From Laburnicola sp. R22_1 (lineage: Eukaryota > Ascomycota > Dothideomycetes > Pleosporales > Didymosphaeriaceae), in contig JACONQ010000001.1 in NCBI GenBank assembly GCA_014281115.1, positions 186,001-250,000 on the forward strand: a stretch of DNA of 64,000 bases, in the 5' to 3' direction. The position numbers and the translations under genes are program-made. Each line of letters starts with the position of its first letter. Within the stretch, counting starts at the first letter, position 1. This document shows, in pieces, positions 870-64,000 of this stretch. A model generated the notes under the pieces. That model worked only from the letters and a program-made list of their open reading frames with translations, was not told the DNA's origin and ran no database searches.

Positions 870-2606
870 TCACCCACCGCCCGCTTCAGCGTCGCTAACC
901 CCCAAAAACCCATCCCACCACTTGCGGAAGTCCCCATCGACCCAATCCCTCAGCACCTTTAAGCTCTTGACCAGCCGATATGCCTGCACCGTATTCGCCG
1001 TGTTTCCCAAGGGAACCGAATGAAAGATCTGAATATTCGATACCGGTTTGCGAATGTCCGAATTCGATGGGTGGGGGGCGTTTGAGGGCATGACCCGGGC
1101 GAAGAAGAGCGACCACGCTTCGGATTGAATGTCGATGAGCGGAAATACAGTCTGTGAGAGGATATCAGAGGGATCCGGGACCATCACGACGGTGGGAGAC
1201 GGGGTCGGTTCCTGCGTCTGTGGCTGCTCCGCTCGCGACATCCTGCCACCTCTCCCACGGCTTTTCCGTCGACCTCGTGTGACCATCTCCGATTCCAGTC
1301 GGCCAGGGCGTGCCTCTGCTGCCGGCTTCTTCACCCCAAGCGGATCAAGCTGCCCCACGAGTGCCTCGAGCCGTGCCACCTGCGCCGCCACCCACACGCC
1401 CAGTTGTACCTTCGCCTCCTCCACGGTCCGACTCTCGGTCTTGGTTTCGATCGATACAGCGATAGGTCGAGCGCGCAGACCCTCGTAGCCGACGTGGTTG
1501 ATGGAATCGGTCGACATGCCGATGAGGGATGATATAATGTCGCGTGCGGGACAGGAGGGCTCGAGGTGAATGGCGTAATCGACGATCTTGCCAGTTGTGA
1601 GGTTGTTCGAATGCGTGGGGCGATATTCCGGTGTGATTCTGGCTGCAGTTCTGGATGGTGTCACTCTGGTTAGCGAAGCTCTTTGAGTGTCCTAAGTCGT
1701 GGACGGGCGGAAGAGTACTTACACGCTTCGGAACCCAACACTCGTCTCATCGTTTCCCAACGCCAGCTCCAGCACCTTGGTGTGCACGCGATTGTTCCAC
1801 TCGGTCTCATGGTCCCGGTTCACCGAACATCGGTGCGACAGCGAAATGATGTCCTGTATGGTCCGCAGCTCCCACAACAGCTCGTCCACTGGCCTTTCGT
1901 CCGACGTGTCGAACTGGTGCTGCTTCACCTTGCCCATGTCCGCCTCTGCCAGCCGTTGTTTGAGTTTCGCAGGCACCACAGGCCCGTCGCCCACGTCCTC
2001 CAGCTTCTCCAAGAGCGCAAGCCCGTTTCCACCGAGCTGCTCCCGTTTCGAAGCGGTCGTGTTCGCCAAGTGTGTGTATATGACTCCATTTCCCACGTTC
2101 CATAAAGAAGTAATCTTCTTGGGGCTGGCCGAGCGGTTGGAAGATTGCGACTGTGTGTGCGATCGTGTAGGCGAGCGGGCCTGGAGGTCGTCGTCGTCTT
2201 CGATGGGCTCGTTGGAAAGGGCCTCTTTGTATGAGAGATTAGGGATAGGGTATGCGCTGCGTGCGAAGCGGTCCGGGCGAGGCGTCGCATCGTCGATATC
2301 GTCGGGCGAATACGCGTCGTCGGGAAATTGGCGTTGATTTTTCGACGGCGAGGGCGTGCGCATGCGCTTCTTGTCAATGCTCTGTTTCGGGCGCGACGTA
2401 TTGCTCTTGCGGGAAGGCATGAACATGTTCTGGTCGTTCGCCGCCATCTCGCCCAGCACAACACGGCGTATCTTCTTTGGCGGGCGCGGGCTCTTGCGAC
2501 TGTCGGGCTGCCGTCGCTTGCAAGTGCGCAAGGGAGAGGGATATGGTCGAGTGCGGGCGCGAGGTTCAAGTTCGCGGATCCAGGCGGCGACTGAGATGGG
2601 ATGCAT
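870..2606 (-). CDS. PD-(D/E)XK nuclease-like fungal protein, two exons
   Basis: CDS is 2606-1723 joined to 1665-870, giving 559 aa. The 57-bp intron (1722-1666) has a GTAAGT donor and joins in phase 2. An open frame extends further upstream, but the ATG at 2606 (MHPISVAAWIRELE) fits the usual start of this family. The first ~200 residues are basic, Ser/Pro-rich and probably disordered. The C-terminal half carries the conserved block: an acidic residue in KIVDYAIHLEP (about residue 324), then RPIAVSIETK (E about 368, K about 370), which is the ExK half of the nuclease signature, then VQLGVWVAAQ. This matches the widespread fungal PD-(D/E)XK nuclease-like domain family from memory; its substrate is unknown. 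A nuclear role is only inferred from the basic N-terminus. Family assignment fairly sure, activity unproven. Confidence 0.75.
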
Positions 2607-2883: not shown

Positions 2884-4623
2884 TTAAGAGGGTTTGCAGA
2901 CGCTCTCAAAGGACGACCCCTTAGTGATTCTTCTCAAGATTAGCTGGTTTAGCTTGACTGAGGCCTCTTCCCAGCTGGGATTTCGAGACGCCGCAGTACC
3001 CAGCATTTTGCAATACTTCCAGCCCATAGAGGCCCATTCGTAATGTTTCACCGTCTCGATGCCCCAGTACCCGCTCGCTTTAGTGAGAGGAGCGAGGCAT
3101 TCTTTCTTCAGACCTGCACCAGAATCAGCTAATGATTTATCATCTTAACTTCTCATTTCTAGCGCTTCCTAAAAATTTACCACTTTGTATGCCCTCCCTT
3201 TGCGTCTATCACCGCCTGACAACGTTCATTCATGTCCCCAATATATCTAGTTACATCAGACACGTCTATCGCCATCCACTCTTTTTCTATACATTGCCTT
3301 AGCTCTGCAAGGGTACGCGGGGACCTCTTGGCCACTCTCTGTTTCAGCAGCCGCCACACATTCTCAATCGGGTTCAGGTCAGGAGAATTAGCAGGCCAGC
3401 ACATCTTGTCTATACCACGCATGTCATGGAGCTGCTTGGTAAGCTTGGCAGTGTGCGGAGAAGCACCGTCTTCCATTAGCACAGCGCGTCTGATGCTATT
3501 TTCTGGATGGAGCACCACCCAGTCCATGAAATGGTATACCCAAGGAAGTACCCTTTCTCTATACACTTTCCCCGTTAGCCTTCCCCACGCCTTCTCCATC
3601 ACCACCATCGGTCCCTTCCCAAATGCTGAGATGCTCCCATGGATCGTCCAAGAAGAGTAGGTCCTCAGCTTCGGAACGCAACAAGATGCGTCATACTTCT
3701 CTCCGGGTCGCCGGGTAACATATACCCTCCCAAAGCCTTCCGTGGTAAAGGTACATTCGTCGGTCCAGACGACTCGAGCCCATTGCTCGGGCTTCCAGCT
3801 TAGGTGCTCGGTCGCCCATGCCAGGCGCACCTGCTTTTGCGCTTCAGTGAGCAGAGGCTTTGCGGTGACCACGCGGCGTCCGTACGATTCCCTCTTGAAC
3901 GCTGCCATTAGAGCTTTCCGACCGGCCTGCACGCCTTCCAGCCGTGCAATCTCCTTGTACGTCATCCGACGGTGAGCTGCGTCAAGTGTGGCACGAGCGA
4001 CCAGGCGTTCCCGGACTTTGTCAGTAATAGCAGGCTTCCTCCCCGCTTGCTTCTGAGGGGCTTCGGCTCCCGATGCAAGCACAGACTGGACGGTGGTTCG
4101 AGGAAGTCGCATGGCGGTAGCGATCGCTTCCACGGACCAGCGTGACAGGCTTGATAGTGTGAAAATGCGACAGCGTTGTTGGTGCGTTAGTCTAGTTCCC
4201 GGCCGGCGAGTACGGTCTCGGTTCCGCTCCGATGCACGCAGCGCGCGATGCTGGCGAGGTCTGCGAACTATGTTAGGCATCCTTGTTCTTTCAGACAAGT
4301 GTTGGCACATTTGCAAGATTGCGCATAGCCTTTTATAGCCATAAAGCGAGTGTTCCCTCACTTTCCATAGCGTCTTCTTCTTCGATGACAAGTTCCTTGC
4401 TAATGCTCTTATAATACTCCAGAATAAGCACAGGGTGTGGTTTCTCCGGAAGATGTGCATCCCTCTCTTCATGTTGTCGCTGTTTGGCTTCTGCCAGCCA
4501 CTTCCGCCACAGATGATTTGGAAGGGAATGGCCACGTGGCACTACACAAGCGAACAGCCTGCGGTATCTCTGTGTAGCCGGGCACGTTCGCGATATCGAT
4601 TGATTGGGAGAGTGATACGCCAT
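2884..4623 (-). CDS. Hypothetical two-exon gene with a Tc1 transposon inside its intron
   Basis: Exon 1 is 4623-4362 and exon 2 is 3113-2884, together 163 aa. Exon 1 (starting MAYHSPNQ) is charged and ends at a GTGAGG donor in phase 1. Exon 2 begins after a GTGCAG acceptor preceded by a branch-like GCTGATT, is in the matching phase, and stays open for 75 codons to TAA. The 1,248-bp intron is far longer than the 47-62 bp introns elsewhere here, and most of it is the Tc1 transposase gene on the same strand. I do not recognise the protein; it has no visible signal peptide or membrane segment. The splice model rests on phase agreement and signals only. The alternative is that the two ORFs are unrelated. 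Confidence 0.45.
3177..4310 (-). CDS. Tc1/mariner-type transposase (DD34E), intact
   Basis: About 377 aa from the ATG at 4310; a second candidate start at 4280 gives 367 aa. A TATAAAAGG box lies about 20-30 bp upstream of 4310. The N-terminal third has helix-turn-helix regions (LTHQQRCRIFTLSSLSRWSVE, then RKPAITDKVRERL). The catalytic triad reads WTDECTF, MEDGASPH and SPDLNPIENVW, with 34 residues between the second D and the E, the Tc1 spacing. No internal stop or frameshift is present, so the enzyme could be functional, cutting at TA dinucleotides. Clear terminal repeats were not found, so element ends are unknown but must lie between 3114 and 4361 if the host-intron model is right. Codon use is unlike the RIP island: it shows no RIP damage. 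Confidence 0.92.
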   Translation of the reverse strand: MCQHLSERTRMPNIVRRPRQHRALRASERNRDRTRRPGTRLTHQQRCRIFTLSSLSRWSVEAIATAMRLPRTTVQSVLASGAEAPQKQAGRKPAITDKVRERLVARATLDAAHRRMTYKEIARLEGVQAGRKALMAAFKRESYGRRVVTAKPLLTEAQKQVRLAWATEHLSWKPEQWARVVWTDECTFTTEGFGRVYVTRRPGEKYDASCCVPKLRTYSSWTIHGSISAFGKGPMVVMEKAWGRLTGKVYRERVLPWVYHFMDWVVLHPENSIRRAVLMEDGASPHTAKLTKQLHDMRGIDKMCWPANSPDLNPIENVWRLLKQRVAKRSPRTLAELRQCIEKEWMAIDVSDVTRYIGDMNERCQAVIDAKGGHTKW

Positions 4624-5884
4624 ATCTGCATTGCGAACGGCCTAGAGCGATGTCGATGCCGGATCGGTCGGTCAGCAGTCACCGCTTAATCCGTGCTACG
4701 CTGTTTAAAACCGCATCCAAGACGTTGCGGGCTCGAGGCCGCGATAAGAGACGGGTTGAGGTTTGAACCTGCCCGCTTAGAAACAAATCACGTTAATAGG
4801 TGGAAGAAGTGGTTATACGGCAACGGTCGGTCCGAAAACGGGACGTGGATGCGGAGCTCCACAGCGGAAACGAAAATGGGCCCGTGGATCCTAAAATCAG
4901 GCTCCAATGAAGTTTCCGCGAGAGCGGCGGCACTATGATCGGCTTGGCGCGGGGATGCGTCAGCAGACTTGGCAGCCGCAACGCGTTGTTGCTGTCAACC
5001 GACGCGCCTAGCATCTAAACCGCGACCAGTCTTCGCGACAACCATCGTGTAACTTCACGATGCGGTACAACACATGGCCATGTCCACATTGCAGACTTCC
5101 ATCAAACAAAAACTAGATATTATACCGCCCTCGAGCTCCGCAAAGCACCCTTCGACGCCGCCGCCGCCGCCGACCGTCGAAAAGCGGTTCTCCCAAGCAC
5201 GACCAGTTCTTATGCTGTTCACAGACATCCGGGCTGAAGGCACGTCAAGCGCGACCGGTAGACAGAATCTCAACTTGTAGAAGGAGGGTGTGGTGAGGTC
5301 GAGCGTTGGCTTGAGCAAGACGAGGCGCTATTGGGATATGTCGAGGACAAGATATGCTGGGTGTGTACGACTGGCAGTGGGCGTTGTGGCTTAAGGGCTG
5401 CTCGATATTTTTGGCATAGATAAATGAAGCCTTTGCTCTGGAACGGCGTAGACTATGACGTTAAAGAGTGCCTGCAGTCAAGTTCAACCTGTGGCCGAGA
5501 TTACGATCGCGCGCTCGGAAACTTCGTTAAACTCGCGGCCCTGGGTCCAGTTTCCGACCCCATTGACGCCTACATAGGTAGCGTCGGAGCCGGTGAAGAA
5601 GAAGCGGACAGGCAGCAATATGGAAACAGGGTGATATGCTATACTATTCCTGCCATTTCCGTCGCTTGTGAATCGTGTGCTTAGCGTCCATGATGGAGCA
5701 CTAGATCTCTACAACACACTTACACTGAAGATAGTTGGGGCACATGCAAACAAAGACAGCTAGAGGAGAGATACGGTGGCTGTCAAGTAACACTTGGCTT
5801 GTTGAAGGAAGGCAGTGAGCCCCTGAGGATTGCCACACCGGGCAGATGGAAGCTGCGTCTCGAGACTACGCATTCCTTAGTCCC
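4624..5884. other. Intergenic DNA, no gene supported
   Basis: A 68-codon plus-strand frame (5074-5280) with a run of prolines is the only somewhat gene-like segment. It has no recognisable domain and I do not call it. Confidence 0.4.
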
Positions 5885-6575
5885 CTACGTCTTTGGTTTA
5901 TTCCCAAGTTTGATCGCCTCGAATGGATCGCTACCGAACTCAGACTCAGCTGAATCCGCTTGCAGCACCCTTGAACTGCTGGTTTTGATTTCATCGTCTT
6001 CCATCGCCGGCGCTACGTTACCGCACACTTCCCTTCTGGTTAATACTAAGAAGTAATTGAGGAGCGTCGACTTACATTGCTTGGATACTTTACAGTTGTC
6101 TTTACTTGAACCGGGCTCTGAAGTGTGTTGGTTGATGGTAGTACCAAAGAGCTGGATGGCCCCTCGAAGGCCATCGATAACTGCTTTTCCCTTCGCCTTC
6201 TGAAACGCTTCCCCTCTATTCCTGCAGGCTGTGGCACTACCAAAACCGATAGCCTGGACGGGGTAAGCATCGAATACAAAGACAAGGGACGAGAACAGAC
6301 ATCATGAAAGGTGCCGCCTGTGAGAGTCACCCGTACAATTGCCGAAACTCCCAATGATATCTCTTTTGTGCTGGAGTCTAAATCTACCTGTATTGAGTGT
6401 CAGCAAAACGCTAAGATAATATCCGCAGCAACTTAACACGTACGAATTCAGTTTTAATATCCCGAATCTCACTTGACCAGCCATTAAATCCAAAGAGCTG
6501 GTTGGCCCTATCCACAACCTCCTCAATACCGGTATGAGCCGCTTCACTGCCTTCGGTGTCTGGCGTTACATTCAT
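5885..6575 (-). CDS. Short Rad52-fold (Rad52/Rad22-like) protein, three exons
   Basis: CDS is 6575-6444, 6387-6301 and 6253-5885, 195 aa. Both introns (56 and 47 bp) are phase 0 with GT-AG ends. The joined exons give the Rad52 annealing core in order: DRANQLFGFNGWSSEI (about residues 22-37), SLGVSAIVRVTLTGGTFHD (about 55-73), IGFGSA, then EAFQKAKGKAVIDGLRGAIQLFG (about 87-109). Rad52 proteins anneal single strands and load Rad51. Canonical fungal Rad52 has several hundred residues; this one lacks the conserved N-terminal helix before the ANELFG block and the long Rad51/RPA-binding tail, and ends in a short acidic stretch. The motif equivalent to human LKRALRSFG reads LRGAIQLFG, losing basic residues thought to line the DNA groove. 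It is best read as a short or decaying paralogue. An upstream exon cannot be excluded. Confidence 0.8.
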
Positions 6576-6829: not shown

Positions 6830-7100
6830 CGATCCGTGGCGCAGTTAGCGGTTCCGGCCGAACTGCGGGACCACCGGTAAGGGCTGACGCCATGCTAGCT
6901 CGTCGACGCGTGGGATCCACTGCGGGAACCAAGAGACCCTATAAATAGGCACAACGAATAAGTTTGCAGTGGGAGTAAACACAATTCGTCCAGAGCTCAT
7001 GTTAGCTCTGAGCTAGGATATCGCGTGTCTGCGCTCAGTTATATGACCGGTATTACTAAGCGCGTGCTGGTTCAACTCTGGACCAGTTTTTTATTAGGTG
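6830..7100 (+). repeat. Possible LTR-like promoter fragment
   Basis: Compact GC-rich sequence with a strong TATA box (CCTATAAATAGG, about 6938-6949) followed by a non-coding leader and no open frame. This layout resembles the U3/R part of a fungal LTR. No partner LTR or target duplication was found, so the call is tentative. Confidence 0.25.
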
Positions 7101-7509: not shown

Positions 7510-9102
7510 TCATGACCAGGATTCGCTGAGCCGCACACCTGTTTTCTGCACTATGAGTAGATTCAGGCTCATGTCGAATTTATCTGCAGCCTTTGCACAA
7601 AACTCAGCGCAGTTAGCACAGACATAAGGTTGTTCCTTTGCGGGTCGCCAAATAAAGATATCCACGTGGAGCTTCGAAAGAGATGGTGGTTTGCAGCGAT
7701 CTAGTTGTGCTTCCTCCTCCACGTCTCCCATTGCTGTGGTGTGATTCCACAGCATGAAGGCCAAGACCTGCTTCTCTGCATGGCATGCATTGAACGAGCC
7801 AGGTCGTCCCTTTTCGTCCAGGTAGTGCCGCTGCAAATCATGCTCCAATAATTCGGCTAGCTGGAAAACCTTTTCTCTCCAAGTCGGACGGTCAAGCGCA
7901 CCATCACGGGAGCCAAAAGGCCCACTATTGTATCCGCTTACGGCAAACGTATACGGCAATGCTGTGCCCCGGGCCAAACATGCAACTGTCTTCCAGTCGT
8001 TCGACAAGGGTATGTCGAAGGTCTTTCGAAGTATTTCGCTAATAATCTCACTCTGGTCGAAGGCATTTGTTTCGATGAAGCGACGGGCTTGACTCTCTCC
8101 ATGAAGCTTAACGAGCCTTTCCCTCTCTCTCTCTGCGCGCTTCTTCGCTTCTTGGAGCTCACATTGTTCAACTACGTCTCTTAGCGCCGAAATCTCCAGT
8201 TCACGCTTGCGTAGCCGTGTTCTCGTAGCAGGATGATCTGCATAAGCGGGATGTAGCTCCAGCGCTCGGAATTCTTCCTGGTGGCCCAAAGCTTGCCTGG
8301 AAATGTCCAGAAGAGACTCTCCGTCACTAGCCGCGACGTCCGTACTAGCTCCAGCTCTGATCAACCTCCAGGCAATGCGGCCGTACCCGTATTGGATTGC
8401 TCTAATTAAAGCAGTCTCGCCACTGCCATCGTCGGCTTCTAGGGGAGGTTTATGCTTCAGCAACCAGTCAACGACCTCAATATGGCCTTCCTCACACGTG
8501 GCGAGAAGGATAGGCTTATCACCAGGAAAGCCCACTTCACCAATCAGAGCCCGTGGGTTTTCCGATAGGTCCAAGACATCTTGAGCACTTTTAGCGTCAT
8601 TATTAACGCAATGACTGTCGAACAGCAATTTTTCTTGCTGTGGTTCAGGCGATTGGATACTTAAAGTTCCAAATGCCCCGACAAGGTCTTCGTCCCCTTC
8701 ATTCGGTTCCTCAGGTGAGTCGTCCAGCACAAGATATTCTGCGTTCCCACCGACGTGCTCCTCTAGGCTGTCCACTTGAACAACTTCCCACTGAAGATAT
8801 TCGGCATCGTCAATACCCCAACCAATGGTTCTCCAACGGCTTCTCTTGTTATCAATCTCCCACCATAATCCATCCGTAAGTGGGTCGTCTTCAAATGGAA
8901 ATAGCAACCGGTAGTATGAAAGTTCGCGAGGGCGTTGATGGCTCAGAACCGGTACGCAGTGCGCAAGTCTAGAGTTTATTGACCCTGCCTCTGGCATGGT
9001 GTAGCCATGACTGTGAATCTTCTTATTGCAATTGAAGGGGCAACGGACTTCGACGCCATGAGCGTCCCATGCCAACACAAGTGCTGCTTCGAGGTGTGCC
9101 AT
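7510..9102 (-). CDS. Ankyrin-repeat protein with C-terminal nucleic-acid-deaminase-like domain
   Basis: A single-exon 530-aa protein. The N-terminus has a zinc-ribbon-like block (CPFNCNKKIHSHGY, then RLAHC; residues 21-49) common in this fungal family. Ankyrin repeats occupy about 192-265 (PILLATCEEGHIEVVDWLL and ETALIRAIQYGYGRIAWRLI). A charged coiled coil spans about 293-335. The C-terminus carries the deaminase zinc signature: HAE at 441-443 (zinc histidine, catalytic glutamate) and CANC at 495-498. From memory this corresponds to the SsdA-like deaminase domain seen in many fungal ankyrin proteins and related to bacterial polymorphic-toxin deaminases. The substrate in fungi is not known to me. 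All zinc and catalytic residues are present, so it may be active. No secretion signal is seen; the product is probably intracellular. Confidence 0.8.
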   Translation of the reverse strand: MAHLEAALVLAWDAHGVEVRCPFNCNKKIHSHGYTMPEAGSINSRLAHCVPVLSHQRPRELSYYRLLFPFEDDPLTDGLWWEIDNKRSRWRTIGWGIDDAEYLQWEVVQVDSLEEHVGGNAEYLVLDDSPEEPNEGDEDLVGAFGTLSIQSPEPQQEKLLFDSHCVNNDAKSAQDVLDLSENPRALIGEVGFPGDKPILLATCEEGHIEVVDWLLKHKPPLEADDGSGETALIRAIQYGYGRIAWRLIRAGASTDVAASDGESLLDISRQALGHQEEFRALELHPAYADHPATRTRLRKRELEISALRDVVEQCELQEAKKRAERERERLVKLHGESQARRFIETNAFDQSEIISEILRKTFDIPLSNDWKTVACLARGTALPYTFAVSGYNSGPFGSRDGALDRPTWREKVFQLAELLEHDLQRHYLDEKGRPGSFNACHAEKQVLAFMLWNHTTAMGDVEEEAQLDRCKPPSLSKLHVDIFIWRPAKEQPYVCANCAEFCAKAADKFDMSLNLLIVQKTGVRLSESWS

Positions 9103-10950
9103 TTGAGTATGTGAAACGAGGTATCTAGGAGATGGCGAGCGTCCAGCTTCAGTTTATCTGCTGGCTTGCATGCCCCGCACCTTTCTAACTGCTCCACAAC
9201 TGGATGCGGTCACGCCACCAATGGCTGTCGCCACCGTGACTCAGACAGCTCAAATTTTGGGCAAGCAGAAGACATAGATGTCCCTACGATGCTTATTAGG
9301 TGGTTTTAAACTGTGATTGCTGCGAGCAGAAACTGTCAACGTTCAATAAACATCATCTTTTCGAGAAGGGTGTCAAAATTAATTCATCTAGCAGATCCGC
9401 TTTCATTTCGGAGTCGGATTTTATGATATCCCGAACGCTTGGCAAAGACTCCGCACAGCCACGGTCTAACAGTCATAACAAATAAATTACACATGAATCA
9501 GGCACGGCCAAGGCAGTGCGGACTCTGTTCAGATTGTGTCGTCAATGAAGCGTCGATGGGTCGTGTGTCCCTAGGAGCCGTCAGGTCGGCTTTGACCTGA
9601 GGGATCCTCGTCCGTTAACGTTCATCTGTTACATCGTCTTCAGATTCTTCTTCCACCGAGCCAGAAAAGTACGGCGGGGCTGTTGACTGAGTGAAGGATT
9701 GGAACGTCCACTTTTGACGTTGAAGAGTAACGTTAGAAGAAATACAGGAAATGGGCAACTCTGGTTGGCGCTGGAACCAACCACCCTCTTTGGTGTGGCA
9801 TTGTGGCGTTGTTGTACAGCCACATCTCGCTCCAATGCCGTTAGTCGCTGAAAGCGAGATGTGAAAGCAATTGGCAGCGCCAAGTGGGCAGTCGATGGAC
9901 CCGATACTTGAATTTCACGTCTTTAGCTTATTATCTGCCCGTCGTACATGCAGGAGGGGTTGTGACGCACATGCTGCTTCCTTTCTGCGGCTGTGAATAT
10001 CCGGTGAGCACCGACTACTGGCGAGCTGCATGATGCCGTTTTCGTCTCACCGGAAGACGCCATGGCCACGTCAACAATACATGCATGGGCAGCCAGTAGC
10101 TGAAAAGCCGGAAATGGTAAGCGCATCATACGCCACCTTTCATAGTGGCTTCTAGCAACAACATTATCGGGTATTCAAGTGCCGAGGACAGGCAATTTGA
10201 TAGATCGGCGATGCCATACAGATTGAGCGCAGAGATTGAAAGCGGGCACGCTTGCAGTTCTCGTAAATTATTGGTGTGTTTTCAAGCCGTGCTTACGTGT
10301 TCCTTGACAAAGGCGTTTAATGCTGACCTTTGGTTGTGCTGCGCTGGGTGTTCTTCCAGCTCCTGCTGTGGACTCCGATCTCGACTGCACCAACCTGCAC
10401 ATCTCCGTACTAGGCATTGAGAGCAATGCCTGTTTTTAATGCGCTCTTTATCAGCATCAAAAACTATTTACAACACAAACTCGGTACGCCCGGAGAGTTC
10501 AACAGAGGACGGAGGGGTATAATAATCTAGCTAAATGTGGAAAGTGGGGTGGACCCAAAATCGGGCACGGGAGCGGCGAACCCTTATGGCCCGTGCTTAT
10601 CATATCCGTGAGGCTCTCAGGCTCAAATACTTTCCCCAACTTTCAAAACATTTTTGCCCAAAACCTCGCAACTATTTCTCACAGTCCCTTCGGATTCAGC
10701 ACATTACGACAAGGGTATAACCAAAGCGAGTCGGCCACCTCCCTGCTAGCGCCGGCGGAGTGCAAGAACCCTCTGCTCTGCATGATGCAGCTCTAGCCTG
10801 CTCATGTGACTTGGTGGGGCTTGGCCGACTAGGCAACCCTCATTGACAGCAGAGGAATATCGCCTTGACAATAACACCAACCTTATCACGTCATTCAACA
10901 TAACTATCCCAAACACATAAGTTCAAGTGTGTGGACATTATAATATTACC
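9103..10950. other. Intergenic DNA with one repeat copy
   Basis: No supported gene. A 68-codon minus frame (9923-10129) starts with a hydrophobic stretch but has no other support. A copy of the dispersed GC-rich repeat occurs at 10706-10760. The last 100 bp serve as upstream region of the HET-ankyrin gene. Confidence 0.4.
10706..10760 (+). repeat. Copy 3 of the dispersed GC-rich repeat
   Basis: CAAGGGTATAACCAAAGCG followed by AGTCGGCCACCTCCCTGCTAGC-type core and GCCGGCGG. It is closest to the 15,022 copy. Confidence 0.6.
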
Positions 10951-13900
10951 ATGTCCCAGTACCGTTATTCTCCGCTTTCACCAGGACGGGACAGTATTCG
11001 TCTGCTTCGCCTAATGCCACACAAAGACGAGAGGGCTGACATACAATGCGAGCTCTTCGAATACTCTCTACCGAACTCGTGCGAAAGGACTCACCTGTAC
11101 GATGCTCTATCGTATGTATGGGGTAACCCAGGCGAGAAGCTGCCTATCTTTATACACAAACATAGTTTTGATGTTACGGTCAACCTTCACGCGGCGCTTT
11201 CACATCTTCGGAATCACTCTATTGAGCGCATTCTATGGGTAGACGCTATTTGCATCGACCAAGCGAATCAGGAAGAGAAGGGGCACCAGATTCAGTCCAT
11301 GGCGAAAATCTATGGTCAAGCAAACCGTGTAGTCGTTTGGCTTGGAGAGGCGGCAGACGATAGCGATCTAGCACTCGAAGAGATACGCGTTGCTGGGGGC
11401 AAGAAGTCTACGAACTCTTTAGACAGCGAAAAGATCCAGCAAGCAGTTCTTGCGCTGCTCCAACGACCGTGGTTCCGGCGCATCTGGGTATGGGGAACAG
11501 GACACTTGACAACATTCGTACGAATTACTAAAGGCTATCTAGATACTCCAAGAAGTTGCCGCAGCTCGACATGTCCTGATTATGTGTGGATCTAAGAAGA
11601 TTGACGGATACGTCTTCTGCTTAGGTGTTGATTCATTGAAGGATTTCTACGAAGCTCGCCCAGGCTTGCAGGGGTTGATCCATTCAGTAACCTATCTAAT
11701 CAGAGAAGCCATTTTCAGACCTGGCTACTCAATGGGTAGTTCAGGCAGGTCTACTCTGGATATATGTCCACTAGGCGAGTTGATGGACATGTATCACGCC
11801 CATGAGGCTACCGAGCGCCACGATAAGGTGTATGCCTTGCTCGGCATGAACTCTGATGATCTTAGCGAAGCTAACCTGCTGCCTAACTACAGAGATCCAT
11901 GGGAGGAAATCTTGCAGCGACTAGCTAAGTTTCTTCTCAGTGAAAAGATATCTGTGGAGACTTGGTGTGATAAAGAGATTGCAGCAATCAAGAGCAAGGG
12001 CTGCATTCTTGGTAAGGTCTCTTCGGTGCTGAGAGATACTGCTTTGGATGATAGACAGAGTGTGGATGTCATTTTCAAGAACATATCGGGGCAACCGGAA
12101 TATATGGGAATGCAGCGCTGGACTCTCCGACCCTCAGCAAAATCCGTCCGAGATGGAGACCTCATCTGCCTTCTTCAAGGAGCTTCAAAGCCTGCGATCA
12201 TCAGATTATGTAAGAATTATTTTGCTATTATCATGATTGCAGCTACTCCTCTGGAGAACATACGAATGGAGGAAGGATATATCAAGTGGCCAAACCTCTT
12301 GCAATCGGTAAAAGCCTTCACCCGCGATTTTCTACTTTTCTGGGACTGGGAAAATTCCTTAAAGAAGTTCCAAGATCCGGAAGAATATGAAACTTTAATA
12401 CGAACGGACGATTGGGCGTCAGAACATTCAAAGACAGACAGAGAAGGCTATTTAGACAGAGCGACTAGAACATGGAACGTTGCACTAATATTAGGAGACG
12501 TAGGAGAATACAAAGGGGCAGAAGAGAGGGTTCAAGAAGCAATTGAGGGCTATAAGAGAGCGTTTGGAGTAGAGTATCCGTACACCCTAAAAAGTCAATA
12601 CGGTCTGACGCCGCTATCATGGGCCGCAGGGAACGGGTACGATGGTGTAGTACACCTACTACTGGCGAAAAATGGTGTCGACCCGGACCTGAAGGATAGT
12701 CAATACGGTCGGACGCCGCTCTCGTGGGCAGCCGAGGGAGGGCACGAGACCGTGGTCAAGCTACTGCTCGAGACGGGCAAGGTCGAGGTTGACACAAAGG
12801 ACAAGTACCATCGGACGCCGCTCTCGTGGGCAGCCGAGGAAGGGCACGAGGCCGTGGTTAAGCTGCTTCTCAAGACGGGCAAGGTCGAGGTCGACGCAAA
12901 GGATATGTACAGTCGGACGCCGCTCTCGCGGGCAGCCGAGGAAGGGCACGAGGCCGTGGTTAAGCTGCTGCTCAAGACGGGCAAGATCGAGGTCGACACG
13001 AAGGACAGCAACGATCGGACGCCGCTCTCGCGGGCAGCCGAGGAAGGGCACGAGGCCGTGGTTAAGCTGCTGCTCAAGACGGGCAAGATCGAGGTCGACA
13101 CGAAGGACAGCGACAGTCGGACGCCGCTCTCGCGGGCAGCTAAGGAAGGGCACGAGGCCGTGGTCAAGCTGCTGCTCGAGACGGGCAAGGTCGAGGTCGA
13201 CGCGAAGGACAGCGACGGTCGGACGCCGCTCTCGCGGGCAGCTAAGGAAGGGCACGAGGCCGTGATTAAGCTGCTGGTCGAGACGGGCAAGGTCGAGGTC
13301 GACGCGAAGGATACGTACAGTCAGACGCCGCTCTTGCGGGCAGCCAACAAAGGGCACGAGGCTGTGGTTAAGCTGCTGCTTAAGACGGGCAAGGTCGAGG
13401 TCGACGCGAAGGATACGTACAGTCGTACGCCGCTCTTGCGGGCAGCCAACAAAGGGCACGAGGCTGTGGTTAAGCTGCTGCTCGAGACGGGCAAGGTCGA
13501 GGTCGATACAAAGGACAGCGACGGTTGGACGCCGCTCTGGAGGGCAGCCGATAAAGGGCACGAGGCCGTGGTCAAGCTGCTGCTCGAGACGGGCAAGGTC
13601 GAGGTCGATACAAAGGACGGTCAGACGCTGCCCTCGTGGGCAGCCTACCAAGGGCATGAGGCCGTGGTCAAGCTGCTGCTCGAGACGGGCAAGGTCGAGG
13701 TCGATACAAAGGACAGCGAGGGTCAGACGCTGCTCTTGTGGGCAGCCTACAAAGGGCATGAGGCCGTGGTTAAGCTGCTGCTCGAGACGGGCAAGGTCAA
13801 GGTTGACGCGAAGGACAAGTACCGTCGGACGCCGCTCTTGCGGGCAGCCGAGGAAGGGCACGAGGCCGTGGTTAAGCTGCTGCTTGAGACGGGCAAGGTC

Positions 13901-14818
13901 AAGGTCAACGCGAAGGATCTGTACAATCGGACGCCGCTCTTGTGGGCAGCTAATGAAGGGCACGAGGCCGTGGTCAAGCTGCTGCTCGAAACGGGCAAGG
14001 TCAAGGTCGACGCGAAGGACGGGGACGGTCGGACGCCGCTCTGGAGGGCAGCTAATGAAGGGCACGAGGCCGTGGTTAAGCTGCTGCTCGAGACGGGCAA
14101 GGTCGAGGTTGACACGAAGGACAGCAACGGTCGGACGCCGCTCTGGGGGGCAGCCGATAAAGGGCACGAGGCCGTGGTCAAGCTGCTGCTCGAGACGGGC
14201 AAGGTCGAGGTTGACACGAAGGACAGGTACCATTGGACGCTGCTCTCATGGGCAGCTGAGGAAGGGCACGAGGCCGTGGTTAAGCTGCTGCTCAAGACGG
14301 GCAAGGTCGAGGTCGACACGAAGGACAGCAACGATCGGACGCCGCTCTCGCGGGCAGCCGAGGAAGGGCACGAGGCCGTGGTTAAGCTGCTTCTCAAGAC
14401 GGGCAAGGTCGAGGTCGACGCAAAGGATATGTACAGTCGGACGCCGCTCTCGCGGGCAGCCAAGGAAGGGCACGAGGCTGTGGTCAAGCTACTGCTCGAG
14501 ACGGGCAAGGTCGAGGTTGACACAAAGGACAAGTACTATCGGACGCCGCTCTTGTGGGCAGCTAAGGAAGGGCACGAGGCCGTGGTTAAGCTGCTGCTTG
14601 AGACGGGCAAGGTTGAGGTCGACGCAAAGGACAAGTACCATCAGACGCCGCTCTCATGGGCAGCCAAGGAAGGGCACGAGGCCGTGGTCAAGCTGCTGCT
14701 TGAGACGGGCAAGGTTGAGGTCGACGCAAAGGATACGTACCGTCGGACGCCGCTCTCGTGGGCAGCTAAGAAAGGGCACGAGGCCGTGGTCAAGCTGCTG
14801 CAACAAAACACTAAATAG
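10951..14818 (+). CDS. HET-domain protein with TPR-like hinge and 22 near-identical ankyrin repeats
   Basis: CDS is 10951-11487 joined to 11543-14818, 1,270 aa. The 55-bp intron has a TACTAA branch site and joins in phase 0 as RRIW/ILQEVAAARHV, the normal HET continuation. The HET domain spans about 50-200 (YDALSYVWG, RILWVDAICIDQ, ANRVVVWLGEA, RPWFRRIW). A TPR-like motif (ALILGDVGEYKGAEERVQEA) lies near residue 500. From about 531 to the end run 21 full ankyrin units and one partial, mostly 34 residues, of the form RTPLSWAAEEGHEAVVKLLL. HET domains trigger cell death in fungal non-self recognition; ankyrin arrays act as the sensor or binding surface in such proteins. The ATG at 10951 matches the family start MSQY-YSPL. 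No damage is seen. The repeats differ mainly at two or three positions per unit. Confidence 0.9.
12598..14812 (+). repeat. Tandem 102-bp ankyrin-coding repeats
   Basis: About 22 units of 102 bp; one (about 13609-13710) is 3 bp short. Long stretches such as AAGGGCACGAGGCCGTGGT recur almost unchanged at the DNA level, including third positions, which indicates unit exchange rather than protein-level constraint alone. The same regularity creates long spurious antisense frames. Confidence 0.9.
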
Positions 14819-16350: not shown

Positions 16351-19168
16351 TCACAAGGCTTGAATGCCCTTGAAGAACCCATTCTTCATCAACGCGTCGT
16401 TTTCCTGGACCAGCTGCTTCATCCTCTCCACCTGTTGCTTCTTTGTCAAGCCCTCGCTCTCCACCTCTTCTTTCCATTTCAGCAGCATCTGTTTCAGCAG
16501 CCTGCTTCCCTCTTCCACCTCGTCTTTGCTGGCTGGCACGTACCCTTGTTCATGCTTTCCCGAAAAGTCTTCCAGCTCATCTGCTTTCCGCTTGGCCATG
16601 TTGATGACCTTTTGCGGGAAGCGAACAAGCTCGGCGACGTGGATGCCAAAAGACTGATCGCAAACGCCAGGCTCGACCTTGTAGAGGAGCGTGACTTCGC
16701 GCTTCTGCTGCAGGCTGTTACCAGACTCCACCGTGCCTTCGGAGATGTGCGCCACGACGTGCAGGTTCTGTACTTGGGGATACGTGTCGACCAGTGCCGT
16801 CAGCTCGTGAAAGTGCGTTGCGAAGAGTGCAAAGGCGCCAATCTCCTTGACGATGTACTCGGAAATGGCCCATGCCAGACCGAAGCCGTCGTAGGTGCTC
16901 GTGCCACGGCCGAGCTCATCGATGATGATCAGTGATTCCTTTGTTGCAGACTTTAGGATATTGGCTGTCTCCAGCATCTCTGCCATGAACGTCGACACAC
17001 CCTTGATCTGGCTATCGCTCGCACCGACCCTCGCGAGGATGCAGTCAAAGATAGTGAGTTCGGCTTCTGCCGCTGGTACAAAACAGCCAACCTGGGCCAT
17101 GAGTGCAATGACACCGATTTGGCGAATGTAGGTCGATTTGCCGCCCATGTTGGGGCCAGTGATGATGGAGAACTCGCTCGAACCGCGCACAAGGCTGACA
17201 TCGTTTGTGATGAATGAAATGTCGTCTTGCATCTCCAGACATGGGTGGCGGGCTTCCTTCAAGATGGTGTTGCCTGTGCCCCGCGGGTGCATCGTGGGTC
17301 GTGTATACGATGTAGGAGCGTGAACGGAAACGTGTGCGAACGCGACAATGACATCCAAATGGGCAAGGACTGCAGCTAGCTTCTCAACAACTGGGATATA
17401 CGAAGAAGCTACCGACACGACTTCGTTAACCAAACCAGTTTGCGTGCGGTTGTAGGTCTCTGAAAGTTGGTCAAACTCGCGTCGTTTCGCTTGGAGAGAC
17501 GACGTGGTAAAGTAGACACCGTTCTTTTGTGTCGAGCATTCTTGATACTGCTTCTTGTTTCGTATGCAACCAGCTTCGTTGCGAGTCAGTCGGAAACACC
17601 AGCCATGGACACGGTGGTTTTCAAGAAATAGTTTCTTCTCGGTATCCTGGCCGAGGTCGTCGCCTACGCTTATGTGTTCGTCCGTCATTTCGCGTCGGAG
17701 TTTGTCGAGACGCTTACGAATGGTCCCCAGCCCTTCGTCAAACTCGGATTTGATGATGAACTCGTGGTTGTCGAGCGCATCTAGATCAACCGTCGTCTCG
17801 ACCATTTCCTGTAACTTGGCGAACGCGTCGTTGTATTCCCGTAGCTTGTTGGTGTACTCTGCGTCTAGTGGGTCCCTATATTGCTCATCCATGACAGATT
17901 CGAGTGCTTGCAGAAACCCTGGCAGGCGAATCACAACCTGATATGTCCGTACAACATCTTCCAGATTCGCAACCTTGCGCTGAAATTTCTTCGCCAGTCG
18001 GTAGAGATCGGGAATGGAGCGGAGATGTTCTTCCTGCATAGTCTGCCTCAGCTCAGTGTCGTTGACAAAAGCCTCGACAAGCTGTTGTCGTCGGTTAATA
18101 TCAGCGGCATTCATCAGCGGCTGCTTTAACCATTGTGCCAGCAAGCGACTTCCGGTGGGCGTTTTGCAATGGTTCAGCAAGCCGTACAAACTCATCGTCT
18201 TTGCTCCGTCCCTTGGTCCCGGCATAAGATTGAGTGCCTTCAGAGCGGCCGAATCGAGCTTCATGTATTGCGACAGGTCGTGTTGGTATAGCTGATATTG
18301 TCCGAAGTTGGAGGAATCGGACATGACGCCCAAGTACTTTATCAGAGCTGCTGCGGCACCCATGGCAAGCTTCAGATCGGTCTGCGGAAGGGTACTCGTG
18401 GCACGCTCATCTTTTAATAACCGCGGCAAATCCTGCTCAATGTCCTTGGTGCCAAAGTCGGCCGCGCCTCGCAGTGATACCGCGCAACCACAGTTGTCGG
18501 CGATTGTCCGAAGCTTGTTGAGCTCGACATCCTTCTTCGACGTATCGGCCTGTATGAGACATTCCTTCACGCCGAGCTGAATAAGAAGCGATTCGAAATT
18601 CGAATAGAGGTCATTGTCCAAGAATTCCGTCACTCCGAGCTCTCGCACGCTCGCGTCAGCAAAGCAAACGCCTACATTGCGTGCTTCGCCTGCTTTTGCC
18701 GACACTTTGACAGCCAGCATGATGGGGGCATTCTCCACCTGTCCGCCAAGTTCGTCTTCGACATCCTGCAGGTTCCCGGGTGACGCCTGCTTCACGACTT
18801 TCCACGCCATCCTCCCCGAAGATTCCCATATTTCGACACGTTTGCTCAATCGGAAGAGAGCATCGCGGAGGAAGTTGCGAAAAACGGTGACGGTCATGGT
18901 GACGGATTCGAGGCCCGGATCGCGGCCGAGCTTGCGGATGACGGCAGTCGTGCGATACACCTATTCTTGTCAGCACGGCGTCCGAATTGTGCAGCTCTGG
19001 AGCAATAAATCTCACATGATTGGCAATAAATTTGGCATCCTCCCCGTGTGAGCTGTAGTAGTCTCCTCGGTCGAAGATTCGTATCGTGTCGTCCTTTTGT
19101 GGGAGATTGCGAAAGAATTTACAAAAACTAGACTCGTCTTCCTCTTTCAACTCGGGCCGGGATGCCAT
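16351..19168 (-). CDS. MSH2: DNA mismatch repair protein MSH2 (MutS homologue)
   Basis: CDS is 19168-19016 joined to 18960-16351, 920 aa, the normal fungal length. The 55-bp intron (19015-18961) has a GTGAGA donor and a CTGAC branch site and joins ANH/VYRTTAV in phase 0. MSH2 pairs with MSH6 or MSH3 in the nucleus to recognise mismatches and small loops. Visible are the N-terminal mismatch-domain region ([19 protein letters not shown]), the connector ([12 protein letters not shown]), the lever/clamp region, the Walker [10 protein letters not shown] (about 653-661), Walker [17 protein letters not shown] (from about 728) and the ATHFHELT switch. The frame is intact with no RIP-type stops. Its start codon is only about 200 bp from the AT-rich island, so its promoter must be short or embedded in the island edge. 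Confidence 0.98.
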
Positions 19169-55775: not shown

Positions 55776-57198
55776 GTATTGCAGACGTGACTCGAGTTAG
55801 AAAACTCTAGCAGCCAACGTCTCTAGCCACTTCCGCTAGCCACGTTCGCCCTCCTTGCTTTGCTGCACCGCCTCGTCAGGGAGCTTTTGAAGGTCTTTTC
55901 TTCCGCCCAGGAAACTCCCGTCGTGCACACTTCTCAGGTCAAAGTAGCGTTCAAGGCCTAGAAACATATTTATCCTTATTTGGAGGTTCCTCGCCGTATC
56001 TCTTGACCCATGAACAGACATCATCGAGTTGCTCAAAGTCAAGGTACCCTGAAATGTGTCGACATAGAGGGTGTCTTGCTACGCAGCCATGGACAAATGG
56101 AATCGAAGCTGGATTGATACATGTAATCACTACAAAAGTCTAGCTGCAGCATGTGTGAACAGGCGCCGGAGTAGACGACTAAGGATGACATCGCCCCTCG
56201 TGTACATCTTATTGGAGTATGTTCTGGAAGATCTTGACGCTCTATCGATTGTATACGTTCACGGGCCCACTAATTAGATCAAGTCGATCATATTGACGCG
56301 TGGTGCAGCCTTACGATGCCTTTCACGCCACCCTAGGAGGGACTGATCGTTATACTTCAGATACATCTAACGTCCGTCCCTAAGTCGCGCAAAACCCCCC
56401 GTACCGCAAAATATGCGAGGTACTTTGATGTCAAGCAAGCATAAGTCTACGCACACATCAAAATATTCTATGTCTTTCTAAGGAATGTGTACTTTAGCCA
56501 CTTGCGCATATAGCGCAGCCTCCCTACTAATAAATTATATTTGCATAGTTGCCTCCGCGCCTAATAGACAAGGTGCTTTCTTTCGTCGCATAAAGATGTC
56601 TCTCTACTACAGCCGCACTACCTTGTTTGTGCTACTACGATGCGAAGGTACATATCTTATACAAGCGTCAGAACCTTTTAACGATATTGCGCAGTCATAT
56701 TAGCCTTTTGCCTCAATGTGGCGGGGACATTCATGCGTCCTTGCCACGCTAATTAGTACTTCTAATCGAAGCGCGAACTATATCTAGCTAGCGCGAAATG
56801 GCTCTTACAGACTACATAATCACGCCAACGTTATTTACATTTGTCATCTGGAACGGCCAGCTTGTGGCTTATGGGCCCTATAGTTAGCCTAAGTGTCCGC
56901 GCCATAGTGGGCTGTGCAATCAGCCGCAACCCGCCTGCGATGGCCTGTTCTTACCTACTCTAGCCCAAACCCACTGACACGGCAATAGAACTCGCGCACT
57001 CTCGCGCCGCATCGCCATCGGATTTGATCCTTAGGTATAGCTCTACGTCCTCTCTCTTCCTATGCTGGCTAACCTTAGTACCCTAGGACTAAAGTGCTTA
57101 ACAAGCCGCTGCCTCGTCTCTTCGGCTAGGCTGCCGCGTCTGATGCCGACCAAGATCCGTTCCTACCGCTTGCCCCCGTCCAGCTCTTATGCGAAACA
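55776..57198. other. Intergenic DNA upstream of the HET-NACHT-WD40 gene
   Basis: On the minus strand near 56060-55840 a frame reads DFEQLDDVCSWVKRYGEEPP and continues after a one-base shift as ERYFDLRSVHDGSFL, suggesting a short broken gene fragment. No family is recognised. The rest holds nothing I can support. Confidence 0.35.
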
Positions 57199-60100
57199 AT
57201 GCGTCTTGTGCAACGCAGCAACACTGGCGACTTCGTTCTTACTCAGATCAACAACGACTCTATCCCTCCCTATGCGATCCTTTCACACACCTGGGGTGCC
57301 GATACGGAGGAAGTTACCTTCGATGACCTAACGAATAACACTGGCAAGGATAAGCCTGGCTACAAGAAGATCTGGTTCTGTGCAGAGCAAGCTGCGCGCG
57401 ATGGCCTAGACTACTTCTGGATTGACACATGTTGCATCAACAAGGAAATCAAGGCTGAACTCTCGCACGCCATCAACTCGATGTTTCGGTGGTACCGCGA
57501 CGCGACTCGATGCTACGTCTATTTACAAGATGTCCCCAGACCTCCTCTTAACGCTGACAAAGAGCGTAGTCCGTCGCTGTGGGTATCGGACTTTCGCAAT
57601 AGTAAATGGTTTACTCGGGGTTGGACGCTCCAAGAGCTCCTTGCTCCCGCTTCGGTTGAATTCTTTTCCTGGGAAGGCAAGCGACTTGGTGATAAACGTT
57701 CGCTTAGACAGCAAATCCACGAGATCACGGTTATACCCGAATCCGCGCTTCAAGGGGCCCCCTTATCCCAGTTCAGCGTCCATGATCGACTGTCATGGAT
57801 AGAATACCGCGAGACTAAGCGTGCAGAAGACAGAGCGTACTCATTACTGGGTATCTTTGATGTCCATATACCATCTATCTATGGCGAAGGGATAGAGAGT
57901 GCGTTTAGGAGGCTCCAAGAAGAAATTGGCAAGCAGGAGAAATGCATCCAAGATCTATATCTTACCAATCCTCGCAACGACAAGAAGCGCATTGAAGACA
58001 CCAAGGGAGGGCTGTTAGAGGACTCTTACCACTGGATCCTCGAGAACGCCGACTTCCGGCAATGGCGTGACGACAAGAACAGCCGACTGCTCTGGATCAA
58101 GGGCGATCCTGGTAAGGGCAAGACGATGCTGATTTGCGGCATTATCGACGAGTTGAAGAAGTCGGTCGCAAAGACAGACCTCCTATCCTACTTCTTTTGT
58201 CAGGCTACGGACTCGCGAATTAACAGCGCCACCGCGGTGCTGCGAGGTCTGCTATACTTGCTTGTTAAGCAGCAGCCATCACTCGTCTCGCATATTCGGA
58301 AAGAGCACGATCACGCCGGCAAAGCACTCTTCGAGAATGCGAACGCCTGGGTTGCCTTGTCTGAGATCTTTACAAGCATTCTCCAAGACCTAAGCTTGAA
58401 CAGCACGTACTTGATTGTTGACGCGCTTGACGAGTGCGTGACGGACTTGCCAAAACTGCTAGATTTCGTCGCCCAGAAGTCATGCGTGTCTTCTCGTGCC
58501 AAGTGGATCGTCTCTAGCCGCAACTGGTCTAACATCGAGGAGCGCCTAGAGATGGCAGGACAGAAGGTGAGGCTATGCCTTGAGCTAAATGCAGAGTCCG
58601 TAGCTGCAGCTGTTAGCATTTTCATCAAGCATAAGGTGCTACAGCTAGCGCAGCGGAAGAAGTATAACGTCAAAACGCGAGACGCCGTGTTAAGCCATCT
58701 ATCCTTGAACGCGGACGACACCTTCCTCTGGGTGGCTTTGGCCTGTCAAAACCTTGAAGAGACCCCACGATGGAACACGCTTGCGAAGTTGAACGCATTC
58801 CCGCCTGGACTCGACTCTCTCTACGCACGGATGATGCAGCAGATCTGCGCCTCAGACAGCGCTGATCTCTCCCGCCAGATCCTGGCGTTACTAGCGATCG
58901 TATATCGACCCATTACACTTCTAGAGCTTGTCGCTCTTGTGGAGCCGCTCAACGATGTGGCCGACGATCTTGCGTCAGTACGGGAGATAGTAAGCCTGTG
59001 CGGCTCTTTCCTCACGAACCGAGGAGACACTGTCTACTTTGTGCATCAGTCAGCAAAGGACTTTCTATTAGAGAAGGCCGCTAGCGAGATCTTCCCATCT
59101 GGAATCGAGGCCGCCCACTACGCAGTCTTCTCGAGGTCGCTTAAAGTCATGTCGACACTTCAACGAGACATGTACAGCCTCCATGAATTAGGGTACCCTG
59201 CCGAGCTAGTGGAACCGCCAGACCCAGATCCCTTAGCGGCTCTGCGTTACTCGTGCATCTACTGGATTGATCACCTTAGCGATGGGAGTCTTACCTCCGC
59301 TGCGACTTCCCCCGTTGACCTGCGAGACGGTAGCGCCGTCTACGAATTCTTAAAGGAGAAATACCTTTACTGGCTTGAGGCTCTTAGCCTCTGCAAGAGC
59401 CTGTCAGAGGGGATAGTCTCCATAGCAAAACTAAAGCCGTTAGTAGAGGTAATGCTTTACACTGCACTACTATTTCTATGCTATGCATGCTAATACAATT
59501 TAGAGAAGAGAAGATGCAGTTATGTTAAACGAACTTGTTCAAGATGCGCATCGATTTAGTATGGCGCATAAGGGGGCAATAGAGAACAGTCCCTTGCAGG
59601 CATACGCGTCAGCACTTCTATTTAGTCCAGCCAGCAGCCTAGTGAGGGGCTATTTTAAAGAAGAAGAGCCACAGTGGATTACGATAAAGCCAAGTAACGT
59701 TACAGGGGATCAATGGAGTGCGTGCCTGTCGACGCTCGAGGGGCATGGCGATTCGGTCAACTCCGTAGCCTTCTCCCACGACTCCGCACGGCTCGCGTCG
59801 GCGTCGTACGACAAGACGGTCAAGATCTGGGATCCGAGCAGCGGCGCGTGCCTGTCGACGCTCGAGGGGCATGCGATTCGAGGTTCGGCCTTCTCCCACG
59901 ACTCCGCACGGCTCGCGTCGGCGTCGTACGACAAGACGGTCAGCGTCGGCGTCGTACGACAAGACGGTCAAGATCTGGGATCCGAGCAGCGGCGCGTGCC
60001 TGTCGACGCTCGAGGGGCATAGCCATTCGGTCAGGTCCGTAGCCTTCTCCCACGACTCCGCACGGCTCGCGTCGGCGTCGGACGACAAGACGGTCAAGAT

Positions 60101-63532: not shown

Positions 63533-64000
63533 CCCGCACTAGGCTTTGCCATTTGAGCTCTAGCTTACTGTAGCAAGATCTTGGCGCTCGCAGATGAAAG
63601 AAAAGGCCTGAAACGCCACCGCCCTCATCAGCCACAAAGTTGACCAAAACTATATTGCCAAACAGGGCACACGCTACGCAAGCAGGGCACCGATGCCTAC
63701 ATGAACTGATAGCCTAGCAGTAAGTATAAATGCAGACTAGGCTGATCTCATGCATGCTTGCATATCAGTCATGGATTTGGTTAGCGCAGACCGAATGCTT
63801 GCTACAGCCGGGAGGACGGCCGACCCAAAATAACGGAACATCGGCTATGGTTAACGATTTGTGTGCCCTGTTTGGCAATATAGTTTTGGTCAACTTTGTG
63901 GCTGATGAGGGCGGTGGCGTTTCAGGCCTTTTCTTTCATCTGCGAGCGCCAAGATCTTGCTACAGTAAGCTAGAGCTCAAATGGCAAAGCCTAGTGCGGG
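63533..64000. repeat. Apparently perfect 140-bp inverted repeat with 188-bp spacer, cut by the window edge
   Basis: 63533-63672 (CCCGCACTAGGC...GGGCACAC) is repeated exactly as the reverse complement at 63861-64000. The spacer has a weak match to the dispersed GC-rich core near 63799-63830. The arms may continue beyond the window. A foldback transposon or a recent inverted duplication would look like this; an assembly artefact is also possible. Confidence 0.85.

What the first reader, a model, noticed from the sequence alone, without database searches (positions are those of the whole stretch)
5885..6575. Hidden three-exon Rad52-fold gene lacking the usual ends and key basic residues
No single ORF shows it, but splicing at two GT-AG introns (56 and 47 bp, both phase 0) gives an uninterrupted Rad52 annealing core of 195 aa. 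The N-terminal helix and the Rad51/RPA-binding tail of normal Rad52 are absent. The human LKRALRSFG motif is LRGAIQLFG here, which removes basic residues described as DNA-contacting. It could be a diverged short annealing protein, a dominant regulator, or a dying paralogue in a transposon-rich region.
Basis: partly seen in the sequence, partly recalled or inferred. Interest (0 to 1): 0.8.

Follow-up and report, generated by a model that had tools for sequence, protein, structure and literature searches.

The report
Stripped-down Rad52 paralogue in fungus
A filamentous fungus carries, besides its normal DNA-repair gene RAD52, a short three-exon relative that kept the core fold and an acidic tail motif but lost key DNA-gripping residues; it belongs to a small, fast-changing family and is more likely a modifier of Rad52 than a dead copy.

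Summary
On the minus strand, exons 6575-6444, 6387-6301 and 6253-5885 join into a 195-aa protein with a strong Rad52 match. The searches found two more Rad52 loci in this genome: a full-length RAD52 (597 aa) and a second short copy on contig C25. All three share both intron positions. Proteins with the same cut-down layout occur in Pyrenochaeta and Polyplosphaeria, and a less reduced form in Coniosporium. The 11 short proteins form one side of a branch against 18 canonical-type rows (98/94, long branches present). The five most reduced share an invariant EFGSDPFE tail resembling an acidic motif of some canonical fungal Rad52s, so the tail is not wholly absent. R55, a DNA-contact residue, is missing in 11 of 11 short and present in 23 of 23 canonical-type rows. 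Frame, introns and codon pattern argue against a dying gene. Best reading: a Rad59-like accessory paralogue that joins Rad52/RPA and tunes annealing; that step is inferred. Both short copies lie near nuclease-type sequence and share an upstream 18-bp word; a nuclease-annealase module is possible but weakly supported.

The parts
6444..6575 (-). exon 1 of the short Rad52 paralogue (M1 to F44)
   Evidence: Met start at the matching place in P0001, P0006, P0010
6388..6443 (-). intron 1, 56 bp, GT-AG, phase 0
   Evidence: same position in the C25 copy (56 bp) and in canonical RAD52
6301..6387 (-). exon 2 (V45 to D73), 87 nt
6254..6300 (-). intron 2, 47 bp, GT-AG, phase 0
   Evidence: same position in the C25 copy (50 bp) and in canonical RAD52
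5885..6253 (-). exon 3 with stop codon (A74 to T195)
6143..6169 (-). LRGAIQLFG, counterpart of human LKRALRSFG (K152, R153, R156)
5918..5941 (-). EFGSDPFE, acidic tail motif invariant in the five most reduced short proteins; resembles the EDEFGGNLFE / DDEFDGNLFD motif of some canonical rows
6917..6934 (+). 18-bp word CCACTGCGGGAACCAAGA, 342 bp upstream of the ATG; its only other exact copy in the genome is 239 bp upstream of the C25 short copy's ATG
4983..5370 (+). 5' fragment of a multicopy gene (nuclease only by my eye; the intact C13 relative has no Pfam match); a similar segment lies beside the C25 short copy
924..1922 (-). PDDEXK_12 (PF20516) nuclease-like domain, best of 18 hits in the genome; open under several splice choices, e.g. 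a 57-bp intron 1722-1666
3180..4541 (-). transposase-like ORF (DDE_3; Tc1/mariner type by its domains) between the PDDEXK_12 gene and the Rad52 paralogue

Best explanation
It is a genuine intron-bearing gene for a cut-down Rad52 paralogue, one of a small family seen so far in Dothideomycetes. It arose by DNA-level duplication of RAD52 (intron positions kept), lost the N-terminal segment with the R55 loop and the C-terminal region after the acidic motif, and evolves fast. Shown: sequence kinship, gene structure by comparison, loss of residues, conserved tail, predicted core fold (on a homologue). Inferred: the protein has little strand-annealing power alone; it joins or caps assemblies of full-length Rad52 through the core and touches RPA-coated ssDNA through EFGSDPFE, and so tunes (probably dampens or redirects) annealing and Rad51 loading, much as Rad59 modulates Rad52 in yeast.
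For: Pfam Rad52 5.3e-28. C25 short copy and canonical RAD52 with the same two intron positions. Full-length RAD52 present; three Rad52 loci found. Homologues P0001, P0006, P0010 with the truncated layout and six less reduced Coniosporium proteins. 11 short rows one side of a branch (98/94), core five 99/99. EFGSDPFE invariant in 5 of 5. Core pN 0.324 vs pS 0.704 between window and C25 copies; simulated neutral copies stay open in 93, 17 and 3 of 5000 at 20, 30 and 40% divergence. R55 missing in 11 of 11 short rows, present in 23 of 23 canonical-type rows. AlphaFold model of P0001: blocks over residues 31-110 at pLDDT 92-97; the first 28 Foldseek hits are human or yeast RAD52, some chains superposing at 1.4-2.0 A over 73-97 columns. 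Human RAD52 R55A and K152A lose conservative repair in yeast (PMC12869081, passages).
Against: No RNA or protein data; no test of binding to Rad52 or RPA. Long branches in the tree (window 2.05 changes per column; the tool warned that long branches meet). pS near saturation, differences per codon position 0.465/0.465/0.599, and the tail nearly unconstrained (pN 0.537 vs pS 0.718). Whole-model confidence is modest (mean pLDDT 73.3, pTM 0.55); TM-scores by query length are 0.39-0.50 for the 28 and several hits of best E-value have rmsd 4-18 A. The family is known from few genomes. The residue before the conserved AN, matching yeast Rad52 residue 89 (described as needed for Rad59 contact, PMC10606518, passages), is R, S or M in three of the five most reduced members and L in two. 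A regular expression for the acidic motif matched only 5 of 23 canonical-type rows, many of which are partial. That EFGSDPFE binds RPA rests on analogy only.
Confidence: 0.55

Rival explanations
1. Decaying or neutrally drifting RAD52 duplicate in a transposon-rich region, without function.
For: Fast evolution, loss of DNA-contact residues, transposase ORF nearby, weakly constrained tail.
Against: Open frame and kept splice positions at about 51% nucleotide difference from the C25 copy; core pN under half of pS; same truncated form and invariant EFGSDPFE in other genera.
Confidence: 0.15
2. Independent short annealing protein that still binds and anneals ssDNA by itself, e.g. in single-strand annealing between dispersed repeats.
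For: Helix-strand-strand-strand-helix core predicted for P0001; K152 position basic (K/R) in 9 of 11 short proteins.
Against: R55 missing in 11 of 11; K133 position basic in 1 of 11 and K102 position in 3 of 11; the missing N-terminal segment belongs to the ring domain (recalled).
Confidence: 0.2
3. Annealing partner of a selfish PD-(D/E)XK nuclease module (an exonuclease-annealase pair as in phages, here in a fungus).
For: Both short copies lie within 5 kb of a PDDEXK_12 match and of the shared 5' segment; a 21-bp pattern with up to 2 mismatches has 6 sites in the genome (reversed control 0): one at each short-Rad52 locus, three at PDDEXK_12 loci, one elsewhere.
Against: No Rad52 trace by profile search at 21 other loci fetched for nuclease genes or pieces of their 5' part (best 5.5 bits, E = 1.1); gene order and orientation differ between the two loci; in the window the site of that 21-bp pattern is 4859, with 2 mismatches and on the 3' side of the Rad52 gene; the sixth site is beside a fungal protein kinase gene; the C25 nuclease copy looks truncated; neighbours in other species are not visible with these tools.
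Confidence: 0.06

Closest known systems
Rad59 (Saccharomyces cerevisiae Rad52 paralogue)
   Same: a Rad52 paralogue that can anneal ssDNA, binds Rad52 and influences its association with breaks (PMC3496973, passages); that it is short and lacks the Rad51-binding part is recalled
   Different: no Rad59 sequence was compared here; the short fungal family has an acidic motif like that of canonical fungal Rad52 and shares intron positions with the fungus's own RAD52, which points to a separate origin
Canonical RAD52 of the same genome (C5:1809.5k, 597 aa)
   Same: Rad52 core, both intron positions, acidic motif DDEFDGNLFDG
   Different: the short copy lacks the N-terminal segment with R55 and nearly everything after the acidic motif; 26.4% identity over 193 aligned columns
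Rti1, second Rad52-type protein of Schizosaccharomyces (P0130)
   Same: a Rad52-family protein that its source names Rad22-like; that it is a second copy there is recalled
   Different: P0130 (376 aa) keeps the N-terminus, R55 and basic residues at all tested positions
Short Rad52-like proteins of Coniosporium (P0004, P0005, P0007, P0008, P0009, P0011)
   Same: several records per species, R55 missing in 6 of 6, tail like DEFGGNPFDEVDF
   Different: N-terminal part kept in P0004, P0005, P0008 and P0011; K152 kept in 6 of 6, R153 and R156 in 5 of 6; five of six are named DNA repair protein rad52 by the source

Membership tests
Rad52_Rad22 (Pfam PF04098) | score over the curated cut-off | tested here: met
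   98.3 bits vs 20.3
RAD52, full member (TIGR00607) | score over the curated cut-off of 224.8 bits | tested here: not met
   99.2 bits
RAD52, full member | complete N-terminal ring domain with R55 | tested here: not met
   profile starts at 35/153; R55 segment absent; no match to the profile's first 41 positions anywhere in the window's six frames
RAD52, full member | basic residues K102, K133 and K152 of the two DNA-binding sites | tested here: not met
   E, R and R in the window copy: one lost, two exchanged for another basic residue
RAD52, full member | C-terminal Rad51-binding domain | tested here: not met
   the protein ends at residue 195, ten residues after the acidic motif
Rad59-type accessory paralogue | short Rad52-fold protein beside a full RAD52 | tested here: met
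Rad59-type accessory paralogue | orthology to yeast Rad59 | not tested
   no Rad59 sequence was fetched
Rad59-type accessory paralogue | physical interaction with Rad52 | not testable with these tools
   needs co-IP or an in vitro assay
Exonuclease-annealase module | annealase gene consistently next to an exonuclease gene | tested here: inconclusive
   2 of 2 short Rad52 loci near nuclease-type sequence; 0 of 21 other fetched loci of that kind with a Rad52 trace

The most novel reading that the evidence does not exclude
The short Rad52 proteins are the annealing half of a fungal selfish element whose other half is a PD-(D/E)XK nuclease, a eukaryotic counterpart of the phage exonuclease-annealase pair, marked by a shared flanking DNA motif.
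Probability: 0.06. Interest if true: 0.85.

Novelty: new variant of a known kind. Interest (0 to 1): 0.42.

Why it matters
If right, a group of fungi has its own set of stripped Rad52 paralogues that keep the fold and an acidic motif while losing residues that hold ssDNA. That is a natural separation-of-function series for asking which parts of Rad52 serve assembly, RPA contact and annealing, and a candidate modifier of recombination between repeats in transposon-rich fungal genomes. Such genes are easily overlooked: sources name them hypothetical, dsRNA-binding domain-like or simply rad52.

Tried and rejected
Starship cargo: among 88 DUF3435 matches (a lower bound) none is on contig C1 and the nearest on C25 is about 1.5 Mb away. 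Viral origin: no relatives confirmed in viral contigs with P0001 or the five-member alignment, and shared introns point to the host RAD52. Hidden upstream N-terminal exon: no profile match. Terminal inverted repeats: one 20-bp inverted pair 4.5 kb apart in L030, but it encloses a fungal protein kinase gene; I found no such pair framing a Rad52 locus among the motif sites and dropped the idea. Segmental duplication: between the first 16 kb of the window with 9.5 kb to its left and 9.5 kb around the C25 copy, only Rad52, the 5' segment and scattered repeats match. The 18-bp word: 6 sites with up to 2 mismatches (2 of them exact), while the reversed control gave 2.

Literature: the listings of searches, and the passages seen of PMC9779921, show no paper on a second Rad52 in Dothideomycetes; the library is limited to open papers, and only 15 of 20 were listed.

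The chance of both short copies lying near nuclease-type sequence was not tested formally. With about 24 such loci in 63.9 Mb it is of order 1e-5 if placement is uniform (hand estimate), and much larger if both kinds prefer the same accessory regions.

Full report
The minus-strand exons 6575-6444, 6387-6301 and 6253-5885 join at two phase-0 GT-AG introns of 56 and 47 bp and give 195 residues. Pfam Rad52_Rad22 matches with E = 5.3e-28 over profile positions 35-135 of 153. NCBIfam's rad52 model gives 99.2 bits, below its cut-off of 224.8. Ten distinct PDB sequences, all RAD52, match; the aligned stretch of the window protein is residues 18 or 19 to 114.

The genome (G000, 63.9 Mb, 26 contigs; by its genes probably a filamentous ascomycete) shows three Rad52 loci: a full-length RAD52 on C5, a second short copy on C25, and the window copy. 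Joined from its exons, the C5 protein has 597 residues and the C25 protein 215. The C25 introns (56 and 50 bp) and two of the C5 introns lie at the same codon boundaries as those of the window gene; exon 2 is 87 nt in all three (C5 counted by me). Hence the duplication was at DNA level, and the gene model is supported by comparison, though not by RNA.

Relatives. A search with the window protein gave 3 hits, best P0001, 175 aa, of Pyrenochaeta sp. MPI-SDFR-AT-0127; the other two are canonical in layout. A three-member alignment gave 824 hits, of which the best 120 were listed; among the sequences that I fetched, P0006 and P0010 of Polyplosphaeria fusca and six Coniosporium proteins were of the short kind. 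A five-member alignment gave 29 proteins at E <= 1e-20, with the same nine at the top and no further short member recognised by rank or among those fetched. Not every row was read. The three host genera are Dothideomycetes (C. tulheliwenetii by its genus). In a 29-row tree the 11 short proteins are one side of a branch against 18 canonical-type rows (98/94), and the five most reduced are together (99/99); the tool warned of long branches, window 2.05. Several canonical-type rows are partial or metagenomic.

What is kept and lost. In the five most reduced proteins 38 alignment columns are invariant, eight of them the consecutive tail EFGSDPFE. In the canonical-type rows a pattern for the acidic motif matched 5 of 23: own C5 (DDEFDGNLFD), Diplodia and Lasiodiplodia (EDEFGGNLFE), P0002 and P0021; the other 18 did not match, many being too short or partial. 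Yeast work describes a QDDD motif in the middle region as essential for RPA binding (PMC3794917, passages) and an acidic stretch there (PMC10606518, passages); that EFGSDPFE does the same is inference. Human R55 and K152 bind ssDNA in the internal site, K102 and K133 lie in the external site, and R55A and K152A lose conservative repair in yeast (PMC12869081, passages). R55 is the R of GPEYISSR. In one search, R55 is missing or replaced in 11 of 11 short proteins and present in 23 of 23 canonical-type rows. Basic residues (K/R) stand at the K102 position in 3 of 11 vs 22 of 23, K133 in 1 of 11 vs 19 of 23, K152 in 9 of 11 vs 23 of 23, R153 in 6 of 11 vs 23 of 23, R156 in 8 of 11 vs 23 of 23. 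The window protein has E, R, R, G, Q there.

Selection. Between window and C25 copies core pN is 0.324 and pS 0.704; in the tail 0.537 and 0.718. Differences per codon position are 0.465, 0.465 and 0.599 over 187 codons, a mild excess at third positions. With substitutions alone, 93, 17 and 3 of 5000 simulated neutral copies stay open at 20, 30 and 40% divergence. Synonymous change is near saturation, so this is a rough guide; it favours a constrained core and a loose tail.

Structure. AlphaFold on P0001 (39-row alignment) gives helix-strand-strand-strand-helix with block pLDDT 92-97 over residues 31-110 and low-confidence ends; mean 73.3, pTM 0.55. The first 28 Foldseek hits are human or yeast RAD52; some chains superpose at 1.4-2.0 A over 73-97 columns, while several of the best by E-value have rmsd 4-18 A over 102-132 columns, and TM by query length is 0.39-0.50. 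The core fold thus survives in prediction; assembly was not modelled, and the window protein itself was not folded.

Surroundings. A PDDEXK_12 nuclease-like domain lies at 924-1922 (-), open under several splice choices. A transposase-like ORF lies at 3180-4541 (-). A 5' fragment at 4983-5370 matches genes at C13:214.7k and C25:1445k and, more weakly, a segment beside the C25 short copy, where a truncated-looking PDDEXK_12 stretch follows. The intact C13 relative has no Pfam match, so calling it a nuclease is my reading by eye. The word CCACTGCGGGAACCAAGA occurs exactly twice in the genome, 342 and 239 bp upstream of the two short genes; with up to 2 mismatches there are 6 sites, reversed control 2. 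A 21-bp variant has 6 sites, reversed control 0: three at PDDEXK_12 loci, one beside a fungal protein kinase gene, one at each short-Rad52 locus, in the window at 4859. Against this, a profile search found no Rad52 trace at the other 21 loci fetched for PDDEXK_12 or for pieces of the 5' part (L006, L007, L011-L029; best 5.5 bits, E = 1.1); most loci with only the shortest matches, and C10:2024k, were not fetched. The order of parts also differs between the two short-Rad52 loci. The link is suggestive as geography, unproven as biology.

Judgement. A new, fast-evolving, Rad59-like branch of the Rad52 family is the best reading (0.55). A dead copy is unlikely (0.15). An independent annealing protein is possible (0.2). 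The nuclease-annealase module is the boldest reading not excluded (0.06).

Noticed in passing
window 7513-9153 (-): 547-aa ORF with ankyrin repeats and an SsdA_C (single-strand DNA deaminase toxin A, C-terminal) match, E = 5.8e-16, upstream of the Rad52 paralogue.
   Followed up: no
window 10921-14815 (+): HET-domain ORF (10921-11592) followed by an array of about 102-bp repeats (12593-14801) at 82-90% identity by self-comparison.
   Followed up: no
window 16354-18960 (-): 869-aa MutS-family mismatch-repair ORF (Pfam MutS domains I-V) at the edge of an AT-rich block.
   Followed up: partly
window about 19000-44000: AT-rich block, 23-43% GC per kb against about 50% outside, with many diverged repeats; looks like RIP-mutated repeats.
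   Followed up: no
window 57130-60515 (+): HET-NACHT ORF followed by about 126-bp repeats at 84-95% identity.
   Followed up: no
window 63533-63672 and 63861-64000: 140-bp inverted pair, 100% identical, at the window edge.
   Followed up: no
L030 1416-1435 and 5978-5997 (C13:252.4k-257.0k): 20-bp inverted pair of the CCACTGCGGGAACCAA motif 4.5 kb apart, enclosing a fungal protein kinase (PF17667) gene.
   Followed up: partly
L020, L022, L023: Three PDDEXK_12 gene copies about 90% alike, each with a match holding 3-5 in-frame stops, each with the motif in inverted orientation past the domain's end.
   Followed up: partly
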